From a virus: a stretch of 33,095 bases of DNA. The translations under genes were made by a program, and so were the position numbers. The stretch is taken from positions 1 through 33,095 of the IMG/VR virus record IMGVR_UViG_3300035070_001800, one strand, 5' to 3'. Below, piece by piece: positions 16,271 through 31,037 of the stretch. Under the pieces are notes generated by a model. The model did not search any database and was not told where the DNA came from. It was given only the letters and a program-made list of their open reading frames with translations. Positions within the stretch are counted from its first letter, which is position 1. Every line of letters begins with the position of its first letter.

Positions 16271-16279
16271 GTATTTATC
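16271..16279 (-). promoter_or_regulatory. T4-type late promoter GATAAATAC overlapping the gp41 stop
   Basis: GATAAATAC on the minus strand, whose GA is part of the TGA stop of the helicase gene (16280-16278). The predicted +1 near 16266 gives a 14-nt leader to the 78-aa gene. Confidence 0.75.
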
Positions 16280-17699
16280 AAGTTTCGTCAAAAGCAGAAC
16301 GACTTTTAGTTTTAAGCATCGATCTGAGTGAACTTGCTGCCTGCGTCTTTTCAAATACCGGAGTATCATCTTCATCTGATTTGTTTAGAGTAGTTTTCTT
16401 TCTAAGTTGGTCAACCACACTAGAAGAAACGTTTGTTGATGATGGTGTGCCGGCGCCATTACTATTTTGGTCTGGATCATCTGTAATGCGCAAACTATCT
16501 CTATCAAATAATAAACTTACTTTACTACCAACACCAGAAGATGATCGTGTTTTTAACAATTGAAGTTGGTATTGACCTCTCTCACGCATTGCATTAGATG
16601 TAAAGATACCTATAACGTTATCTGCAGTTTGAATTTTACTAATGCCACCAGCAATATGAGAGTGATCAAATTCAATTTCTTCAACTGCACTACGATTTAA
16701 TTGTGATGCTGTCACTGTAACAGTCTGTGTTTCCATAGAAAAGTTACGCATTTCTTCAGTAACATATTTGTCTTTGGTGAATGTATCACCTGCTTGGACC
16801 TTTTTAGTTGCTGGCATTAACAAATCTAGATAGTCAATACACATACAATCAACTGTTTTGCCAGTTTGTATCTGAAGTTCTTTCAAGTAAGACCTTAGAT
16901 CATTGATTGTTGAACCACTCGGAAGATACTTTATACGTAGCATACCGGACTGTTTGCCTTTCGCTTTGACTTGTAGTTCAACATCATCTAGGTCTTTAAA
17001 AATGCGTCTAGTACTGCGGTCCGTCTGCATTGCATACATACGCATACTTGAAAGTTCCTCGGATAACTCCAATGTGAAGTAGACACAATTCAACCCAGCC
17101 TCCGCCCAATTCAGGCTCATATTTTGCATAAAAAGGGATTTACCTGCCCCGGAGCCGCCTGCAAAAATCGTAATCTCCCCACGATTAATGCCACCATATA
17201 ACTTATCATCAAGAGATTTCCAACCAGTCGTAATCTGACCATTATTGTCTTTCATCCGTTCAAGCACACCTCTAGGATCAGCAAAATAATCTGTTCCTAA
17301 ACTACGTGCCAGTCCAATTTGAACAGCCTCTTTAATTCTAAGTTCTACTTCACCGTATTTGCCAGTCTCAAGTAAATCTGTGCTATCGATAATAGCCTTC
17401 TCAATAGCCTTGTGCCGGCAAAATGTCTCAAACTCATCCACAAACCATTCTTCGTGCTGGGTTATGTTGTCCAACTTCTCAATGTCTTGCCCCGTTTCTG
17501 CCTTAATAATTGCAGTATCTGGCAGTGTAGAATAATCTTCACTATAATCAATAAGTTGTTTGACCACAGGACGAACACTGCGGTCAAAATATTCAGGCTT
17601 AATAATCCCTCTGATCCTAGTATATAGTTCAGGATTAGTCACCATGAATTGAATGAATAATTTCTGTAAGTCTGTGCTATAATTTTTTACTTCTGACAT
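16278..17699 (-). CDS. 41: DnaB-like replicative DNA helicase (T4 gp41)
   Basis: A 473-aa RecA-fold helicase that should form a hexamer, unwind DNA at the fork 5'-3' and work with the gp61-like primase in this window. An N-terminal DnaB-like domain (1-130) precedes FAGGSGAGKS (Walker A 181-188), the CIDYLDL Walker B block (287-293), and TASQLNR (about 333-339), the usual DnaB-family motif. SSSGVGSKVSL (about 389-399) probably holds the arginine-finger region. Length matches T4 gp41 (475 aa). The C-terminus from 415 is disordered. Its promoter predicts a transcript starting at the A of ATG, so translation would be leaderless. Its TGA stop overlaps the next late promoter. Confidence 0.95.
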   Translation of the reverse strand: MSEVKNYSTDLQKLFIQFMVTNPELYTRIRGIIKPEYFDRSVRPVVKQLIDYSEDYSTLPDTAIIKAETGQDIEKLDNITQHEEWFVDEFETFCRHKAIEKAIIDSTDLLETGKYGEVELRIKEAVQIGLARSLGTDYFADPRGVLERMKDNNGQITTGWKSLDDKLYGGINRGEITIFAGGSGAGKSLFMQNMSLNWAEAGLNCVYFTLELSEELSSMRMYAMQTDRSTRRIFKDLDDVELQVKAKGKQSGMLRIKYLPSGSTINDLRSYLKELQIQTGKTVDCMCIDYLDLLMPATKKVQAGDTFTKDKYVTEEMRNFSMETQTVTVTASQLNRSAVEEIEFDHSHIAGGISKIQTADNVIGIFTSNAMRERGQYQLQLLKTRSSSGVGSKVSLLFDRDSLRITDDPDQNSNGAGTPSSTNVSSSVVDQLRKKTTLNKSDEDDTPVFEKTQAASSLRSMLKTKSRSAFDET

Positions 17700-19565: not shown

Positions 19566-20252
19566 CTAGTATGTAGTAATAATTTTATCAGCGATGCCGT
19601 GCCTAACTGCCTCCTCGGGCGTTAACCATACATCACTCTCTGGCAAAAGATTCTTACGAATATATGTTTCATTTTTACCAGTACATTTCTTATAATGGTC
19701 AAGCATACGTTCAGTTGATAATTCAAACTCTTTAACAATCGACATTAGTTCGTGTTCTTTACCTTTTGAACCCCAACTATATTGATGTGACATTACACTT
19801 GTGTTCTGAGTAAGATAACGATGTCCTTTTTCGCCAGACATCATTAGTAGTACCCCACAACTTGCAATCATGCCCATGCCATACGTATGTACTGGGATTT
19901 CACTTTGTTTAATTGTATCGATTAAATGCATTGCACTTGCAACTGAACCACCCGGAGAATTAATATAAAGATGAATAACAGAAGGACGTTGTTCTGCAGG
20001 CATCATGTTATATTCCATAATCATTTTTACCAATGGCATACAATTTTCTTGATTGAATTCCTTATCCATGAATAAGACACCGTTATCATACAGAATTTCA
20101 CCTGGCTTTTTAGGTTGCGTAGGTGGCGGTGGCATCTGCATCTGTGGGGGGACAGGTTGCTCTTTGGGTGACGGGATTACTTTTGTCTCTACAACTGGTT
20201 TCTTCCCTACCGTCTTTTTGGTTGTTTTCTTTTTAACTGGATTCTTTGCCAT
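19566..20252 (-). CDS. clpP: ClpP-like serine protease
   Basis: A 228-aa protease of the ClpP/crotonase fold. The catalytic triad is visible: Ser131 in GMIASCGVLLM, His156 in VMSHQYSWG and Asp207 in LPESDVWLTPEEA. LYINSPGGSVASAMHLID (95-112) is the family's oxyanion-loop region. The core matches usual ClpP length (about 180-190 aa), but residues 1-50 form an unusual Lys-rich then Pro/Gln-rich extension. ClpP forms tetradecameric barrels and normally needs an AAA+ partner; no ClpX/ClpA gene is in the window. Marine T4-like phages carry such proteins, with possible roles in host-protein turnover or capsid maturation. It is cotranscribed with the primase. Confidence 0.9.
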   Translation of the reverse strand: MAKNPVKKKTTKKTVGKKPVVETKVIPSPKEQPVPPQMQMPPPPTQPKKPGEILYDNGVLFMDKEFNQENCMPLVKMIMEYNMMPAEQRPSVIHLYINSPGGSVASAMHLIDTIKQSEIPVHTYGMGMIASCGVLLMMSGEKGHRYLTQNTSVMSHQYSWGSKGKEHELMSIVKEFELSTERMLDHYKKCTGKNETYIRKNLLPESDVWLTPEEAVRHGIADKIITTY

Positions 20253-20271: not shown

Positions 20272-21273
20272 TTATCCCAAACGCATCTTTACGTTTATTT
20301 TAGTACTATTACTTATCTTACTATCAATTATACTTTTTAAAGTATATAACTTACCATATTTATTAACTGCATCCGCTGCATCTTTTATTTCATTTTCCCA
20401 TCTTGGAAAACTAACACTCCAACCATTTTCAATAGCCTGTTTAATTAATTTTTCACCTGCTTTATCTCTGTCAGGACTTAATATGATTTCGCCTTTAAAT
20501 AAATTAATATAGTCTATTTGTTCTTTACTTGCTTCGTTACTCATTACAGCAACACAATCTAATGCCGCTGCATCAAATACACCTTCAGTTACTATTAAAT
20601 ACTGTCGATGACTCTTAATAACATCAATATTATATATGAAGTCCTTGGGAGTCTTCATCATATATTTTGAATCTGCTTTTCCTGTATAGTCCCTGCCCGT
20701 GTAACCTACTATGCGGCTGCCCTGGTAGTATGGAATAATGACTCTGTTTCTAAATACTGGATGTGGACTCCAATATATATTACTTACATGGTCATATAGT
20801 CCACGATCTATTAGGTATTTAGCACCTAAAATTGCTCTTTTATCAGGTGCGTCAATTTGTAGTAAATCATCCAATAATACACTTCCTTCGGGTAATTCAC
20901 AATCTTTAAATTTGGGTATAATAGTACTAGATTTTTCACTAGTAAATATCATTGGACCGTCTGCTAATTCTTTATCTCGTATTGCTTGCAATTGAATACG
21001 TTTAATATCACCATCCGGAATGCCCAAATTACGCATTAGTAAAATCATTTTTTTGTTAATGACCCTACCTGATTTATGTGATGCAGTAAACCCGCAGTTA
21101 AAACAATGATACGAAATACTTTCATCATCTGTGCGAATACCACCACGTAATCTAGTATCGTTACGTGCTTCGCCGTTTTCTATACAACAAGGACAGTTAA
21201 AAGACAACCACCCACCCGATGATTGCCGTCTCTTGTGCGGTAAATGTGAATATAATACTTGTTGTATTTCCAT
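20272..21273 (-). CDS. 61: DNA primase (T4 gp61-like)
   Basis: A 333-aa DnaG-type primase that makes RNA primers for lagging-strand synthesis with the gp41-like helicase. The N-terminal zinc ribbon has Cys27-P-C-Cys30 (FNCPCC) and Cys57-F-N-Cys60 (YHCFNCG). The TOPRIM core shows LIVTEGVFDAAAL (226-238; Glu230 is catalytic) and SPDRDKAG (266-273; Asp268 and Asp270 bind metal). Length is close to T4 gp61 (342 aa). The consensus promoter upstream predicts +1 exactly at the A of ATG (leaderless). clpP follows 19 bases after its stop, with AGGAAA before it. Confidence 0.93.
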   Translation of the reverse strand: MEIQQVLYSHLPHKRRQSSGGWLSFNCPCCIENGEARNDTRLRGGIRTDDESISYHCFNCGFTASHKSGRVINKKMILLMRNLGIPDGDIKRIQLQAIRDKELADGPMIFTSEKSSTIIPKFKDCELPEGSVLLDDLLQIDAPDKRAILGAKYLIDRGLYDHVSNIYWSPHPVFRNRVIIPYYQGSRIVGYTGRDYTGKADSKYMMKTPKDFIYNIDVIKSHRQYLIVTEGVFDAAALDCVAVMSNEASKEQIDYINLFKGEIILSPDRDKAGEKLIKQAIENGWSVSFPRWENEIKDAADAVNKYGKLYTLKSIIDSKISNSTKINVKMRLG

Positions 21274-24401: not shown

Positions 24402-24405
24402 ATAT

Positions 24406-24414
24406 GTATTTATC
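24406..24414 (-). promoter_or_regulatory. T4-type late promoter GATAAATAC placed for a leaderless mRNA
   Basis: GATAAATAC on the minus strand, 5 bases before the ATG at 24401. With the octamer at -13 to -6, +1 is 24401. No ribosome-binding site is visible. Confidence 0.7.
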
Positions 24415-24438
24415 TTTCAGGACACCTAATTTAAATTA

Positions 24439-24446
24439 TATAAATA
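24439..24446 (+). promoter_or_regulatory. plus-strand late promoter TATAAATA
   Basis: A perfect T4 late octamer on the plus strand, 5 bases before the ATG at 24452. The predicted +1 is 24452, again leaderless. It lies back to back with the minus-strand late promoter at 24406-24414. Confidence 0.65.
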
Positions 24447-24451
24447 TAGTT

Positions 24452-24838
24452 ATGGATGATAAAAAAATAAAATGGATACAGGAAAACTACCCGTTTTTCT
24501 CATGTGTTCGCTATGGTAAAAAAGAATTTAACGACTATCTGGGGATTGTTATTAACACTGACAATGTAATTACTTCTATGTATAATTGGGAAATAATACC
24601 AACTCCAGAATTACGCAAACAGTTTATTGAGTTAGGCGAACAATGGTGGTGGGAATCAAATAGACTGATTCCTATCAATCTATTTTTAGGTGCTCAAATA
24701 ACACCATATAAAAATTGGATCGTAAATATGAATTCCAAGGATGTAGAAATATCTTGGGGGCCACAAACGAGTTTAAATAATATTGTACAAAAAAGAATTA
24801 AGCGGCGGTCGATTCAACTTGTTCGCAAATTAGATTGA
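24452..24838 (+). CDS. conserved T4-like phage protein, 128 aa, only plus-strand gene
   Basis: A 128-aa protein beginning MDDKKIKWIQENYPFFSCVRY, with GKKEFNDYLGIVINTDNVI, IELGEQWWWESNRLIPINLFL (about 73-93) and a basic end (KRIKRRSIQLVRKLD). The E-Q-W-W-W-E-S-N-R-x-I-P-I-N motif is one I recognise from conserved proteins of T4-like marine phages, which makes this a real gene and not a shadow. I choose ATG at 24452 over the in-frame ATG at 24404, because the first 16 residues precede the conserved start and overlap the opposing late promoter. Its end overlaps the oppositely transcribed DnaE-like gene by 41 bases. Function unknown. Confidence 0.8.
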   Translation: MDDKKIKWIQENYPFFSCVRYGKKEFNDYLGIVINTDNVITSMYNWEIIPTPELRKQFIELGEQWWWESNRLIPINLFLGAQITPYKNWIVNMNSKDVEISWGPQTSLNNIVQKRIKRRSIQLVRKLD

Positions 24839-25385
24839 GTTGAACCACAATACTTAATGCATAGGCTATGGCGTGTGCTTTCTTAAAATAGTAACTATTA
24901 TCTACAGGGCGTGTCCATACATTTTCTTTAATTACATCAACGCTTGCATTGAGTAAATAACGTTTTGCAGGACGAATTATGGCAAGAACTTCTGCTAATT
25001 CTATGACACTTCTTGGTTTTAACACTCTCAAAACATCAATATGACTACGTACATGTGCAAGTTGTTCGACAATTTCTGGATGTTCTAATAACTCCCAGAT
25101 AGGCTCTTTATCAGTTAGTTCATTTAGGTGTTCTTCGTTGCGAACACCACTGTACAAACTATTATTAAGAAAATCTAATTTAAAGTATCCACGTTCTTCT
25201 GCTTCTTTGTATTCGATACTTGCAAGATTACTAACTGGATCATATGGTATTTCAGATACATACACTCCACTATTGTGTTTTGAATAAACACCATTCTTTT
25301 TGATACTTGCAGGTATATGCTCAATTAAATTAAGAATTTCATCTCTATCTAAAATATCAATATCAATGTCTGTTTGAATTTTCAT
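24798..25385 (-). CDS. DnaE-like fragment protein without polymerase catalytic core, 195 aa
   Basis: A 195-aa protein that reads like pieces of bacterial DNA polymerase III alpha in the right order. EYKEAEERGYFKLDFLNNSLY (about 58-78) resembles the E-x-x-G-L-x-K-x-D-F-L-G-L-x-x-L block. LRVLKPRSVIELAEVLAIIRP (119-139) resembles LKPxxFEDIIALxALYRP. YYFKKAHAIAYALSIVVQLNL (165-185) resembles FxKSHAxAYxLISYxTAYLK. The PHP domain and the catalytic aspartates of the palm are absent, so no polymerase activity is expected. I choose ATG at 25385 because it forms an ATGA overlap with the upstream stop; a GTG lies two codons earlier. Last gene of the uvsW operon. Confidence 0.7.
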   Translation of the reverse strand: MKIQTDIDIDILDRDEILNLIEHIPASIKKNGVYSKHNSGVYVSEIPYDPVSNLASIEYKEAEERGYFKLDFLNNSLYSGVRNEEHLNELTDKEPIWELLEHPEIVEQLAHVRSHIDVLRVLKPRSVIELAEVLAIIRPAKRYLLNASVDVIKENVWTRPVDNSYYFKKAHAIAYALSIVVQLNLICEQVESTAA

Positions 25386-29091: not shown

Positions 29092-29592
29092 TTAAAAGAA
29101 ATCGTAACTACTCAATACATCAGGGATACGGTTCAAATCTTTTACAAAGTAGGCGCACTTTGGCTTGTCACCATATTCTAATGGAATAGCAAGAATATGC
29201 CCGTACTTTAGTTTAGGGAAGAACCATTTCACATCGGCAAATACATTATTAATTTTTATTGGTTGCCAATCCATGGTAAAACCGGCTAATGGGTTAGTTA
29301 AGATTGTATCAAAACTACGTTCATTAATACTAGTTAATGGAACAAATTCTAAGTCGCCTATATCCCTATGACCAATAAGTATATGCCAATCGATTGGCAT
29401 TTCTATTTTGTGAGTTCCGATTGTCATCGATATACTTGGTGCCTCAAATGTTTCAATGAAAACTAGAGGAATAAAGTAGAAATCAGGCTCTGCTTTATCT
29501 GTCACATCCATTACACAGTATCTAATATCTTCTATTTCTTCTGGCAAACTGTTCATTTCAAAACAGCGATTTTCTGGTGTTAATATTTTCAT
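29092..29592 (-). CDS. conserved T4-like phage protein, 166 aa
   Basis: A 166-aa beta-rich protein: SISMTIGTHKIEMPIDWHILI (54-74), PLTSINERSFDTILTNPLAGF and NVFADVKWFFPKLKYGHILAI, followed by PLEYGDKPKCAYFVKDLNRIP. The pattern F-x-D-V-K-W-(F/Y)-x-P-K-L-x-x-G-H-x-L-A-(I/V)-P-L recurs in proteins of T4-like marine phages, commonly near uvsW, without known function. It begins on the stop of uvsW (TAATG), so the two are translationally coupled and may act together in recombination. No catalytic motif is visible. Confidence 0.7.
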   Translation of the reverse strand: MKILTPENRCFEMNSLPEEIEDIRYCVMDVTDKAEPDFYFIPLVFIETFEAPSISMTIGTHKIEMPIDWHILIGHRDIGDLEFVPLTSINERSFDTILTNPLAGFTMDWQPIKINNVFADVKWFFPKLKYGHILAIPLEYGDKPKCAYFVKDLNRIPDVLSSYDFF

Positions 29593-31037
29593 TAGTATTT
29601 TACCTTTTCTATGCTAAATGGATATTCAGCATCTTTATAGAATTTCTTCCTTTCAGTTAGATGTCGTTTTGAGAACTTACACCTGCTTGTGATGTCCCAA
29701 ATTTGAACAAAATCTTTATCCTTCGCCACACGTACACCGCGACCGATAGACTGAATAACCCGCACAAAAGACTTGCCAGGCTCCAAAAGAACCATGTTGA
29801 ATATGCGAGGGATATTAATACCAACAGCGGCAACGCCGTAAGTAGCAATAGTGATTGAATTGGTAGCTTCATTTATTTCCTTATATGCTGTTTTCCTATC
29901 ATCAGATTTCATAGAACCTTGAACGAAATCTGCTTCTGGGAGTAGATCCTGTAATGCTTGTCCCGAATTGATACGCCCAGTTAAGACTAGGGTATTTCCT
30001 GTTTGTGATATTTCTTTAATTAAGTTTGCTAAGTATTCTTGTCTTTTTTTATCCTCTAGTAAAAATTTTAGTTCACTTTGATAATCAGTATATAATTGTG
30101 TCTCTTGTGTCTGAACTACATTTACATGACAATTGGACAACACGCCAATATCTTGCAAATCTTTTGCTGCTAGTCTATTCACAATGTCTCCCAAACTGGC
30201 ACGTATGGTAGCAAACTCATGATCAGACTTGGGAATGGTCCCCGTTAATCCCCAACGCAACGGAACACGTGCAAATACACTTGTTAACAAATCCTTTAGT
30301 ACATCAGCCTTTGCTTGATGTACCTCGTCTACAATTACACAGCACACGTCCTCGATAAAGTCCATGATATTTTCTTCGCCTTTTTTAGTTTTCTTTAGCA
30401 AGGAATTGAGGGATTGCCATGTACAGATGGTGTGGGTTTTTCCAATATCTTTCCTATCACCGAAGTAAACACCAGCATCTAACCCACAATTTAGATAGTC
30501 TTCTTCAGTCTGCCGTACCAAGTCCTTATTTGGTACAATAACAATTGAACGCCCATACTTTTCTACTAATTTAGACATAGTAGCAGTCATAATAGTTTTT
30601 CCGGCACCTGTAGCAATCTCTTGTAGAGCCTGTGGTGCCTCCAAAAACTTATTAACAACGTCAACTTGATAATCACGAAGGCGAATAGTTTCACCTGCTG
30701 CTGGATGTCCTTCGGGCCAACATGTGTCGCCCCAAAATTCATCATTAATTGTATCAAATTCTAATTTAGTATGTTCACGGCGATCATCAATGTCAATCTC
30801 ATATCCAGAACTCATAATGATGGGCAAAAGATCATCCAATAAATTTAGATAAGTTCTACCACCGACATCGCAAAACCGCACAGTTCCATCCCAACGTCCT
30901 AATTTATAGGCTGGCATATGATATGCGTGTGGTAGGAAGAACTTTAATTTATCACTACACTTACGGCGTGTAGCAGGATCAAGTCCTTCTAACTTTACAT
31001 TTACTTCGTCTTTGATTAAGATTGTACATTTTTTCAT
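29592..31037 (-). CDS. uvsW: UvsW-like recombination DNA/RNA helicase
   Basis: A 481-aa SF2 helicase. An N-terminal substrate-binding domain (1-115) precedes IATGAGKTIM (141-150, Walker A), IVDEVHQAK (235-243, DEVH box), WGLTGTIPK (262-270), and VIQSIGRGVRVA (427-438, motif VI with arginine fingers). T4 UvsW unwinds branched DNA, R-loops and origin RNA, shifting replication from origin- to recombination-dependent mode. Length matches T4 UvsW (about 500 aa). The consensus promoter predicts +1 at the A of ATG (leaderless). In T4 uvsW is a late gene; here its promoter is of the host sigma70 type, a difference in timing. Confidence 0.95.
   Translation of the reverse strand: MKKCTILIKDEVNVKLEGLDPATRRKCSDKLKFFLPHAYHMPAYKLGRWDGTVRFCDVGGRTYLNLLDDLLPIIMSSGYEIDIDDRREHTKLEFDTINDEFWGDTCWPEGHPAAGETIRLRDYQVDVVNKFLEAPQALQEIATGAGKTIMTATMSKLVEKYGRSIVIVPNKDLVRQTEEDYLNCGLDAGVYFGDRKDIGKTHTICTWQSLNSLLKKTKKGEENIMDFIEDVCCVIVDEVHQAKADVLKDLLTSVFARVPLRWGLTGTIPKSDHEFATIRASLGDIVNRLAAKDLQDIGVLSNCHVNVVQTQETQLYTDYQSELKFLLEDKKRQEYLANLIKEISQTGNTLVLTGRINSGQALQDLLPEADFVQGSMKSDDRKTAYKEINEATNSITIATYGVAAVGINIPRIFNMVLLEPGKSFVRVIQSIGRGVRVAKDKDFVQIWDITSRCKFSKRHLTERKKFYKDAEYPFSIEKVKY

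What the first reader, a model, noticed from the sequence alone, without database searches (positions are those of the whole stretch)
24798..25385. Stand-alone mini-DnaE protein lacking the catalytic palm
The 195-aa protein carries three segments in the order found in bacterial Pol III alpha (K-x-D-F-L region, LKPxxxxELAxxLAxxRP region, and FKKAHAxAYALS region), but no PHP domain and no palm aspartates. A non-catalytic DnaE piece in a phage that belongs to a lineage with a gp43 polymerase could compete with host Pol III for clamp or tau, switching replication to the phage. It could also be a structural cofactor of the phage replisome; it sits in the operon with gp62 and UvsW.
Basis: partly seen in the sequence, partly recalled or inferred. 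Interest (0 to 1): 0.75.

Follow-up and report, generated by a model that had tools for sequence, protein, structure and literature searches.

The report
Catalytic half of split phage polymerase
The gene encodes the metal-binding (catalytic) half of a tiny, two-piece relative of the bacterial replication enzyme DNA polymerase III, a split enzyme already described in large phages, and not a non-catalytic decoy.

Summary
The ORF is real (24798-25385, minus strand, 195 aa) and derives from Pol III alpha, but it is not "lacking the catalytic palm". It opens with TDIDID, aligning with E. coli PDFDVD (D401/D403/D405). These residues are invariant in 85 of 85 homologues. The predicted fold (pLDDT 91) matches only Pol III alpha/PolC with Z above 5, at E. 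coli residues 397-784. The preceding stretch (280-393, GRGS nucleotide-binding motif) is a separate ~175-aa phage protein that stops just before the catalytic aspartates. The halves co-occur in every phage record large or complete enough to judge. PHP, clamp-binding and tau-binding parts are absent, so the proposed competition for clamp or tau has no anatomical basis. All 11 genomes checked also carry a family B polymerase. This split minimal Pol III alpha was published in 2021 (PMC7824862) for group 2.2 jumbo phages; the window gene is one of hundreds of members. Best reading: catalytic subunit of a two-subunit accessory DNA polymerase; activity is untested. Added here: residue map, exact seam, near-complete pairing, and a paired case in a 141-kb phage.

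The parts
24798..25385 (-). C-terminal (catalytic) half of split minimal DNA polymerase III alpha, 195 aa (phrog_11778)
   Evidence: ORF; PHROG E=1.5e-69; AF2 pLDDT 90.6; the only PDB chains with Z above 5 are Pol III alpha/PolC
25353..25373 (-). TDIDIDI motif (residues 5-11): D6/D8/D10 align with E. coli D401/D403/D405, the first catalytic Asp motif
   Evidence: hhalign register Q4-M399, T5-P400, D6-D401; invariant 85/85
25266..25280 (-). KHNSG motif (residues 36-40), equivalent to DnaE KHAGG in the palm
25167..25184 (-). FKLDFL motif (residues 68-73): D71 aligns with E. coli D555, K69 with K553
24969..25022 (-). LKPRSVIELAEVLAIIRP (residues 122-139), equivalent to E. coli LQPDCFEDMIALVALFRP at the palm/fingers boundary
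24852..24887 (-). FKKAHAIAYALS (residues 167-178): H171 aligns with E. coli steric-gate H760 in the fingers O helix
   Evidence: H760 role from PMC8485763; invariant 85/85
24404..24838 (+). Convergent opposite-strand ORF (phrog_11637, unknown function) overlapping the 3' end of the gene by 41 bp; conserved neighbour, not part of the polymerase
   Evidence: present on the opposite strand in 82 of 84 loci, usually overlapping
20272..21273 (-). DnaG-type primase gene in the same replication gene run
   Evidence: phrog_47 E=3e-40; same strand in 73 of 84 loci
16278..17699 (-). DnaB/gp41-type replicative helicase gene
   Evidence: phrog_19 E=5.9e-68; same strand in 64 of 84 loci
29592..31037 (-). 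UvsW-type helicase gene
   Evidence: phrog_16 E=1.9e-75; ResIII and weak UvsW_N; 49 of 84 loci

Best explanation
The gene encodes the C-terminal, metal- and template-binding half of a split, minimal DNA polymerase III alpha subunit. Shown by sequence and predicted structure: it supplies the three catalytic aspartates of the palm and the fingers helix with the steric-gate histidine, while a second gene elsewhere in the genome of its relatives supplies the preceding half with the GRGS motif. Inferred: the two chains assemble in trans into one Pol-beta-type palm plus short fingers; the N-half holds the dNTP triphosphate, the C-half holds two Mg2+ and the primer 3' end, and together they add deoxyribonucleotides. 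Inferred: with no PHP, clamp-binding or tau-binding parts and shortened fingers, the enzyme should be a low-processivity accessory polymerase that works beside the phage's family B replicase, for example in extending primers, filling gaps or repair.
For: Catalytic residues D6, D8, D10, D71 and H171 are invariant in 85/85 homologues and map to E. coli D401/D403/D405/D555/H760 (roles from PMC3919608 and PMC8485763). dN/dS is 0.06-0.14 against close relatives. The AF2 model (pLDDT 90.6) aligns to E. coli alpha 397-784, Taq 458-841 and PolC 968-1358, and no other family exceeds Z 5. The partner, found with PF07733 or a profile, aligns to E. coli 280-393 at Z about 10 and ends 35-44 aa after the start of the GxGRGS motif in all 56 loci tested, so the two proteins tile one enzyme with only E. 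coli residues 394-396 unassigned. Co-occurrence: of 61 named phage records listed with the C-half, 59 have the N-half by tblastn, Slicko01 has it by profile, and the remaining one is a 109-kb unverified partial record; the single N-only record, RAS14, has the C-half by profile. All 6 N-half viral contigs of 200 kb or more also have the C-half. 11/11 genomes carry PolB and 0/11 a PHP domain. Published as a split minimal Pol III alpha in PMC7824862, 2021.
Against: No biochemical test of the pair was found in the papers searched. Much of the Pol III fingers (E. coli about 642-737) and about 90 residues of palm (about 420-509) are missing, so polymerase activity is not guaranteed; another nucleotidyl-transfer activity is possible. 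The complex of the two halves could not be predicted here. The window is a 33-kb fragment, so its own N-half was not seen; pairing is inferred from relatives. Structural Z of the C-half is moderate (7-9, rmsd about 5 A).
Confidence: 0.8

Rival explanations
1. Non-catalytic DnaE piece that competes with host Pol III for the sliding clamp or tau and switches replication to the phage.
For: It is Pol III-alpha-derived, small and encoded by a phage lineage with its own PolB.
Against: All catalytic residues are kept and invariant. The protein ends at about E. coli residue 784, before the clamp-binding and tau-binding regions (established knowledge of E. coli alpha). A decoy does not explain strict co-occurrence with the nucleotide-binding half.
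Confidence: 0.04
2. The two halves assemble, but into a nucleotidyltransferase with a job other than templated DNA synthesis (for example end modification during repair).
For: Large losses in the fingers and palm; the core has a Pol-beta-type fold (stated in PMC7824862), a superfamily used for diverse nucleotidyl transfers.
Against: The steric-gate histidine and O-helix motif tied to dNTP selection are invariant; gene neighbours are primase, DnaB and UvsW for the C-half and clamp loader for the N-half.
Confidence: 0.13
3. The phage C-half complements or inserts into host Pol III alpha rather than pairing with a phage N-half.
For: Host DnaE contains the missing N-terminal palm segment.
Against: The phage nearly always encodes its own matching N-half; phage and bacterial proteins are only about 14-22% identical over the aligned fold.
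Confidence: 0.03

Closest known systems
Split minimal DNA polymerase III alpha of group 2.2 jumbo phages (PMC7824862, Viruses 2021, 13:63; 'Iyer et al.', author name from own knowledge)
   Same: Same phage group (Atu_ph07 and relatives), same division into an NTP-binding N-part and a Mg2+/template-binding C-part from distantly located genes, same coexistence with a family B polymerase.
   Different: Nothing essential. Added here: residue-level map, exact seam, near-complete pairing, list of lost modules, occurrence in a 141-kb phage.
phrog_11778 'DNA polymerase' family
   Same: Window protein matches over 188 residues at E=1.5e-69.
   Different: None; it is a member.
Bacterial DnaE / Pol III alpha (C-family)
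   Same: Catalytic Asp triad, D405 equivalent, KHxxG, LxP...RP and FxKxHA motifs, fold.
   Different: Split in two chains; no PHP, HhH, OB, clamp-binding or tau-binding parts; shortened palm and fingers.
Full-length phage Pol III alpha (phrog_405 type, e.g. Enterococcus phage VRE9_3, Pseudomonas phage PS44)
   Same: C-family homology (phrog_405 E=0.0023).
   Different: Those are single proteins of 770-1284 aa, not a ~175 + ~195 aa pair.

Membership tests
Split minimal Pol III alpha (PMC7824862) | Stand-alone C-part with Mg2+-binding aspartates and template-binding subdomain | tested here: met
Split minimal Pol III alpha (PMC7824862) | Separate N-part with NTP-binding motif encoded by a distant gene | tested here: met
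   Met in relatives, 11 kb to over 200 kb apart; in the window's own phage it could not be seen because only 33 kb is held
Split minimal Pol III alpha (PMC7824862) | Coexists with a family B DNA polymerase | tested here: met
   PF00136 in 11/11 genomes with the pair; no polymerase gene of that kind was sought in the 33-kb fragment itself
C-family DNA polymerase (Pol III alpha) | Asp triad D401/D403/D555 | tested here: met
   D6, D8, D71 invariant 85/85
C-family DNA polymerase (Pol III alpha) | DnaE-type D405 (Asn in PolC) | tested here: met
   D10 invariant; criterion from PMC3919608
C-family DNA polymerase (Pol III alpha) | PHP and (HhH)2 domains, nearly universal in cellular members | tested here: not met
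   No PHP in 11/11 genomes; the chain ends before the HhH region. So it is a reduced, split relative, not a standard member
C-family DNA polymerase (Pol III alpha) | DNA polymerase activity | not testable with these tools
   Needs purified N and C proteins
Clamp/tau-binding Pol III decoy | Clamp-binding motif or tau-binding C-terminal domain of alpha | tested here: not met
   Alignment ends at E. coli residue 784, before those regions

The most novel reading that the evidence does not exclude
The two small proteins form an active, dNTP-selective two-subunit DNA polymerase of about 370 residues, which would be among the smallest C-family enzymes, acting as a dedicated second polymerase (primer extension or gap filling) next to a family B replicase: a bacterial-type analogue of the eukaryotic Pol alpha hand-off.
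Probability: 0.3. Interest if true: 0.7.

Novelty: already known. Interest (0 to 1): 0.35.

Why it matters
If the pair is active, it would be a minimal, split version of the bacterial replicase working beside a T4/eukaryote-like replicase in the same virus. That bears on how multi-polymerase replisomes share work and on the origin of Pol III, and it gives a compact two-part polymerase that is easy to reconstitute. The correction also matters for annotation: many records call one or both halves hypothetical, membrane or structural protein, and the catalytic half could be mistaken for an inactive fragment.

Tried and rejected
Pfam scan of the single window protein (none) and phmmer against PDB (none) were too weak; profiles were needed. 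PF07733 on the window alone gave nothing; in relatives it finds the N-half. Searched for a fused N+C single-chain version: none in the 56 N-half loci tested (the frame always ends 35-44 aa after the start of the GxGRGS motif), nor among C-half ORFs (all at most 221 aa). Cellular origin checked: 11 hits in GTDB contigs, all MAG contigs of mixed taxa and most likely mis-binned phage (inference). Two alignment calls failed on wrong coordinates. No experimental paper on the pair found.

Full report
What was checked. The ORF at 24798-25385 on the minus strand is real: 195 codons from ATG at 25385. It belongs to phrog_11778 'DNA polymerase' (E=1.5e-69) and weakly matches the long phage Pol III family phrog_405 (E=0.0023). 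It is under purifying selection (dN/dS 0.06-0.14 against relatives of 72-85% nucleotide identity).

Profile alignment to a small DnaE set led by E. coli DnaE (L190) gives three collinear stretches: residues 4-22 to 399-419, 36-140 to 510-641 and 150-185 to 738-774. Column-shuffled versions of the alignment never came near the best score (0 of 100). The register puts D6, D8 and D10 on D401, D403 and D405, D71 on D555, and H171 on H760. D401, D403 and D555 are the magnesium-binding aspartates, absolutely conserved in the C-family, and D405 marks DnaE rather than PolC (PMC3919608). H760 is the modelled steric gate that selects dNTPs over rNTPs (PMC8485763). All five positions are invariant in 85 of 85 homologues. 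The profile search against PDB independently finds mycobacterial DnaE1 (E about 0.02-0.07), with stretches in order that include MPDIDIDF, KMDFL, RP and FNKSHA.

Structure. The AF2 model (41 sequences, pLDDT 90.6, pTM 0.73) aligns over nearly its whole length to Pol III alpha and PolC: Taq 458-841, E. coli 397-784, Geobacillus PolC 968-1358. Z is up to 9.2 with rmsd about 5 A; the best unrelated chain has Z 4.8. Foldseek ranks only Pol III alpha chains first. Z is moderate, so the sequence register carries much of the weight.

The missing half. PF07733 finds a second gene in five of the eight large C-half records tested, including all three complete named phages, about 30 kb to over 200 kb from the C-half. 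It is roughly 155-190 aa and carries WGxGRGSSxxSYxLxLIGxHxxDSxxYxLDxxEFLK, the counterpart of the DnaE GPGRGS...FERFLN segment, then ends. Its model (pLDDT 91.3) aligns over residues 79-173 to E. coli 280-393 at Z about 10, again with Pol III alpha/PolC far above anything else. So the two phage proteins tile E. coli alpha: 280-393, then 397-784, cut directly before the catalytic aspartates. The first ~78 residues of the N-half have no assigned match.

Pairing. Of 61 named records listed with the C-half, 59 have the N-half by tblastn. Of the two others, Alishewanella phage Slicko01 has it by profile and PP728206 is a 109-kb unverified record from a genus with ~346-kb genomes. The only N-only record, RAS14, has the C-half by profile. 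Each C-half search reported 63 records and listed 60, so one or two were not checked one by one. In metagenomic viruses, 6 of 6 N-half contigs of 200 kb or more have the C-half and both C-half contigs above 300 kb have the N-half. Contigs with one half only are 191 kb or shorter and likely fragments. All 11 genomes checked also encode a family B polymerase and none a PHP domain.

Genomic setting. The window gene sits in a run with primase, DnaB helicase and UvsW helicase, an order conserved in most relatives. The N-half sits about 1 kb upstream of the gp44-type clamp loader in CBB and Paride. In Slicko01 the halves lie about 11 kb apart with a replication factor C gene between them. This supports a replication role but is indirect.

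How it most likely works. Shown: the halves are complementary, conserved, co-inherited pieces of one Pol III alpha core with all catalytic residues. Inferred: they assemble in trans and add dNTPs, as PMC7824862 proposed. Inferred: lacking clamp-, tau- and PHP-parts and much of the fingers, the enzyme is a distributive accessory polymerase beside the gp43-type replicase.

Known or new. PMC7824862 (2021) describes this phage-specific minimal Pol III alpha, split into an N-terminal NTP-binding and a C-terminal Mg2+/template-binding protein from distant genes, in group 2.2 jumbo phages with a family B polymerase. An earlier paper had noted the N-half as a truncated Pol III alpha (CBB_328, PMC5259590; seen here to be the N-half). 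The finding is therefore already known. Additions here are the residue map, the exact seam, the near-complete pairing, and a paired case in a 141-kb phage, below the usual 200-kb jumbo limit.

Noticed in passing
window 24404-24838 (+): Convergent opposite-strand ORF (phrog_11637, no known function) overlapping the 3' end of the polymerase gene by 41 bp; present on the opposite strand in 82 of 84 loci, an unusually conserved antisense neighbour inside a one-direction replication gene run.
   Followed up: partly
   Followed up: partly
L188 and L185 (OQ508956.1 79038-79259 and 67615-68055): Alishewanella phage Slicko01 (141 kb, circular) carries both polymerase halves only 11 kb apart, outside the jumbo size class in which the split enzyme was described.
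   Followed up: yes
L193 1688-5466: Rhodococcus phage Trina has two adjacent genes both annotated Pol III alpha, the second lacking the usual N-terminal part: possibly an independent split.
   Followed up: no
window 19566-20252 (-): ClpP-family protease gene (PF00574 E=1.3e-34) next to the replication genes.
   Followed up: no
N-half proteins, residues 1-78 (e.g. L163:5995-6228): The N-terminal ~78 residues of the partner protein, placed where Pol III alpha has PHP, are predicted with confidence but were not spanned by the PDB matches.
   Followed up: no
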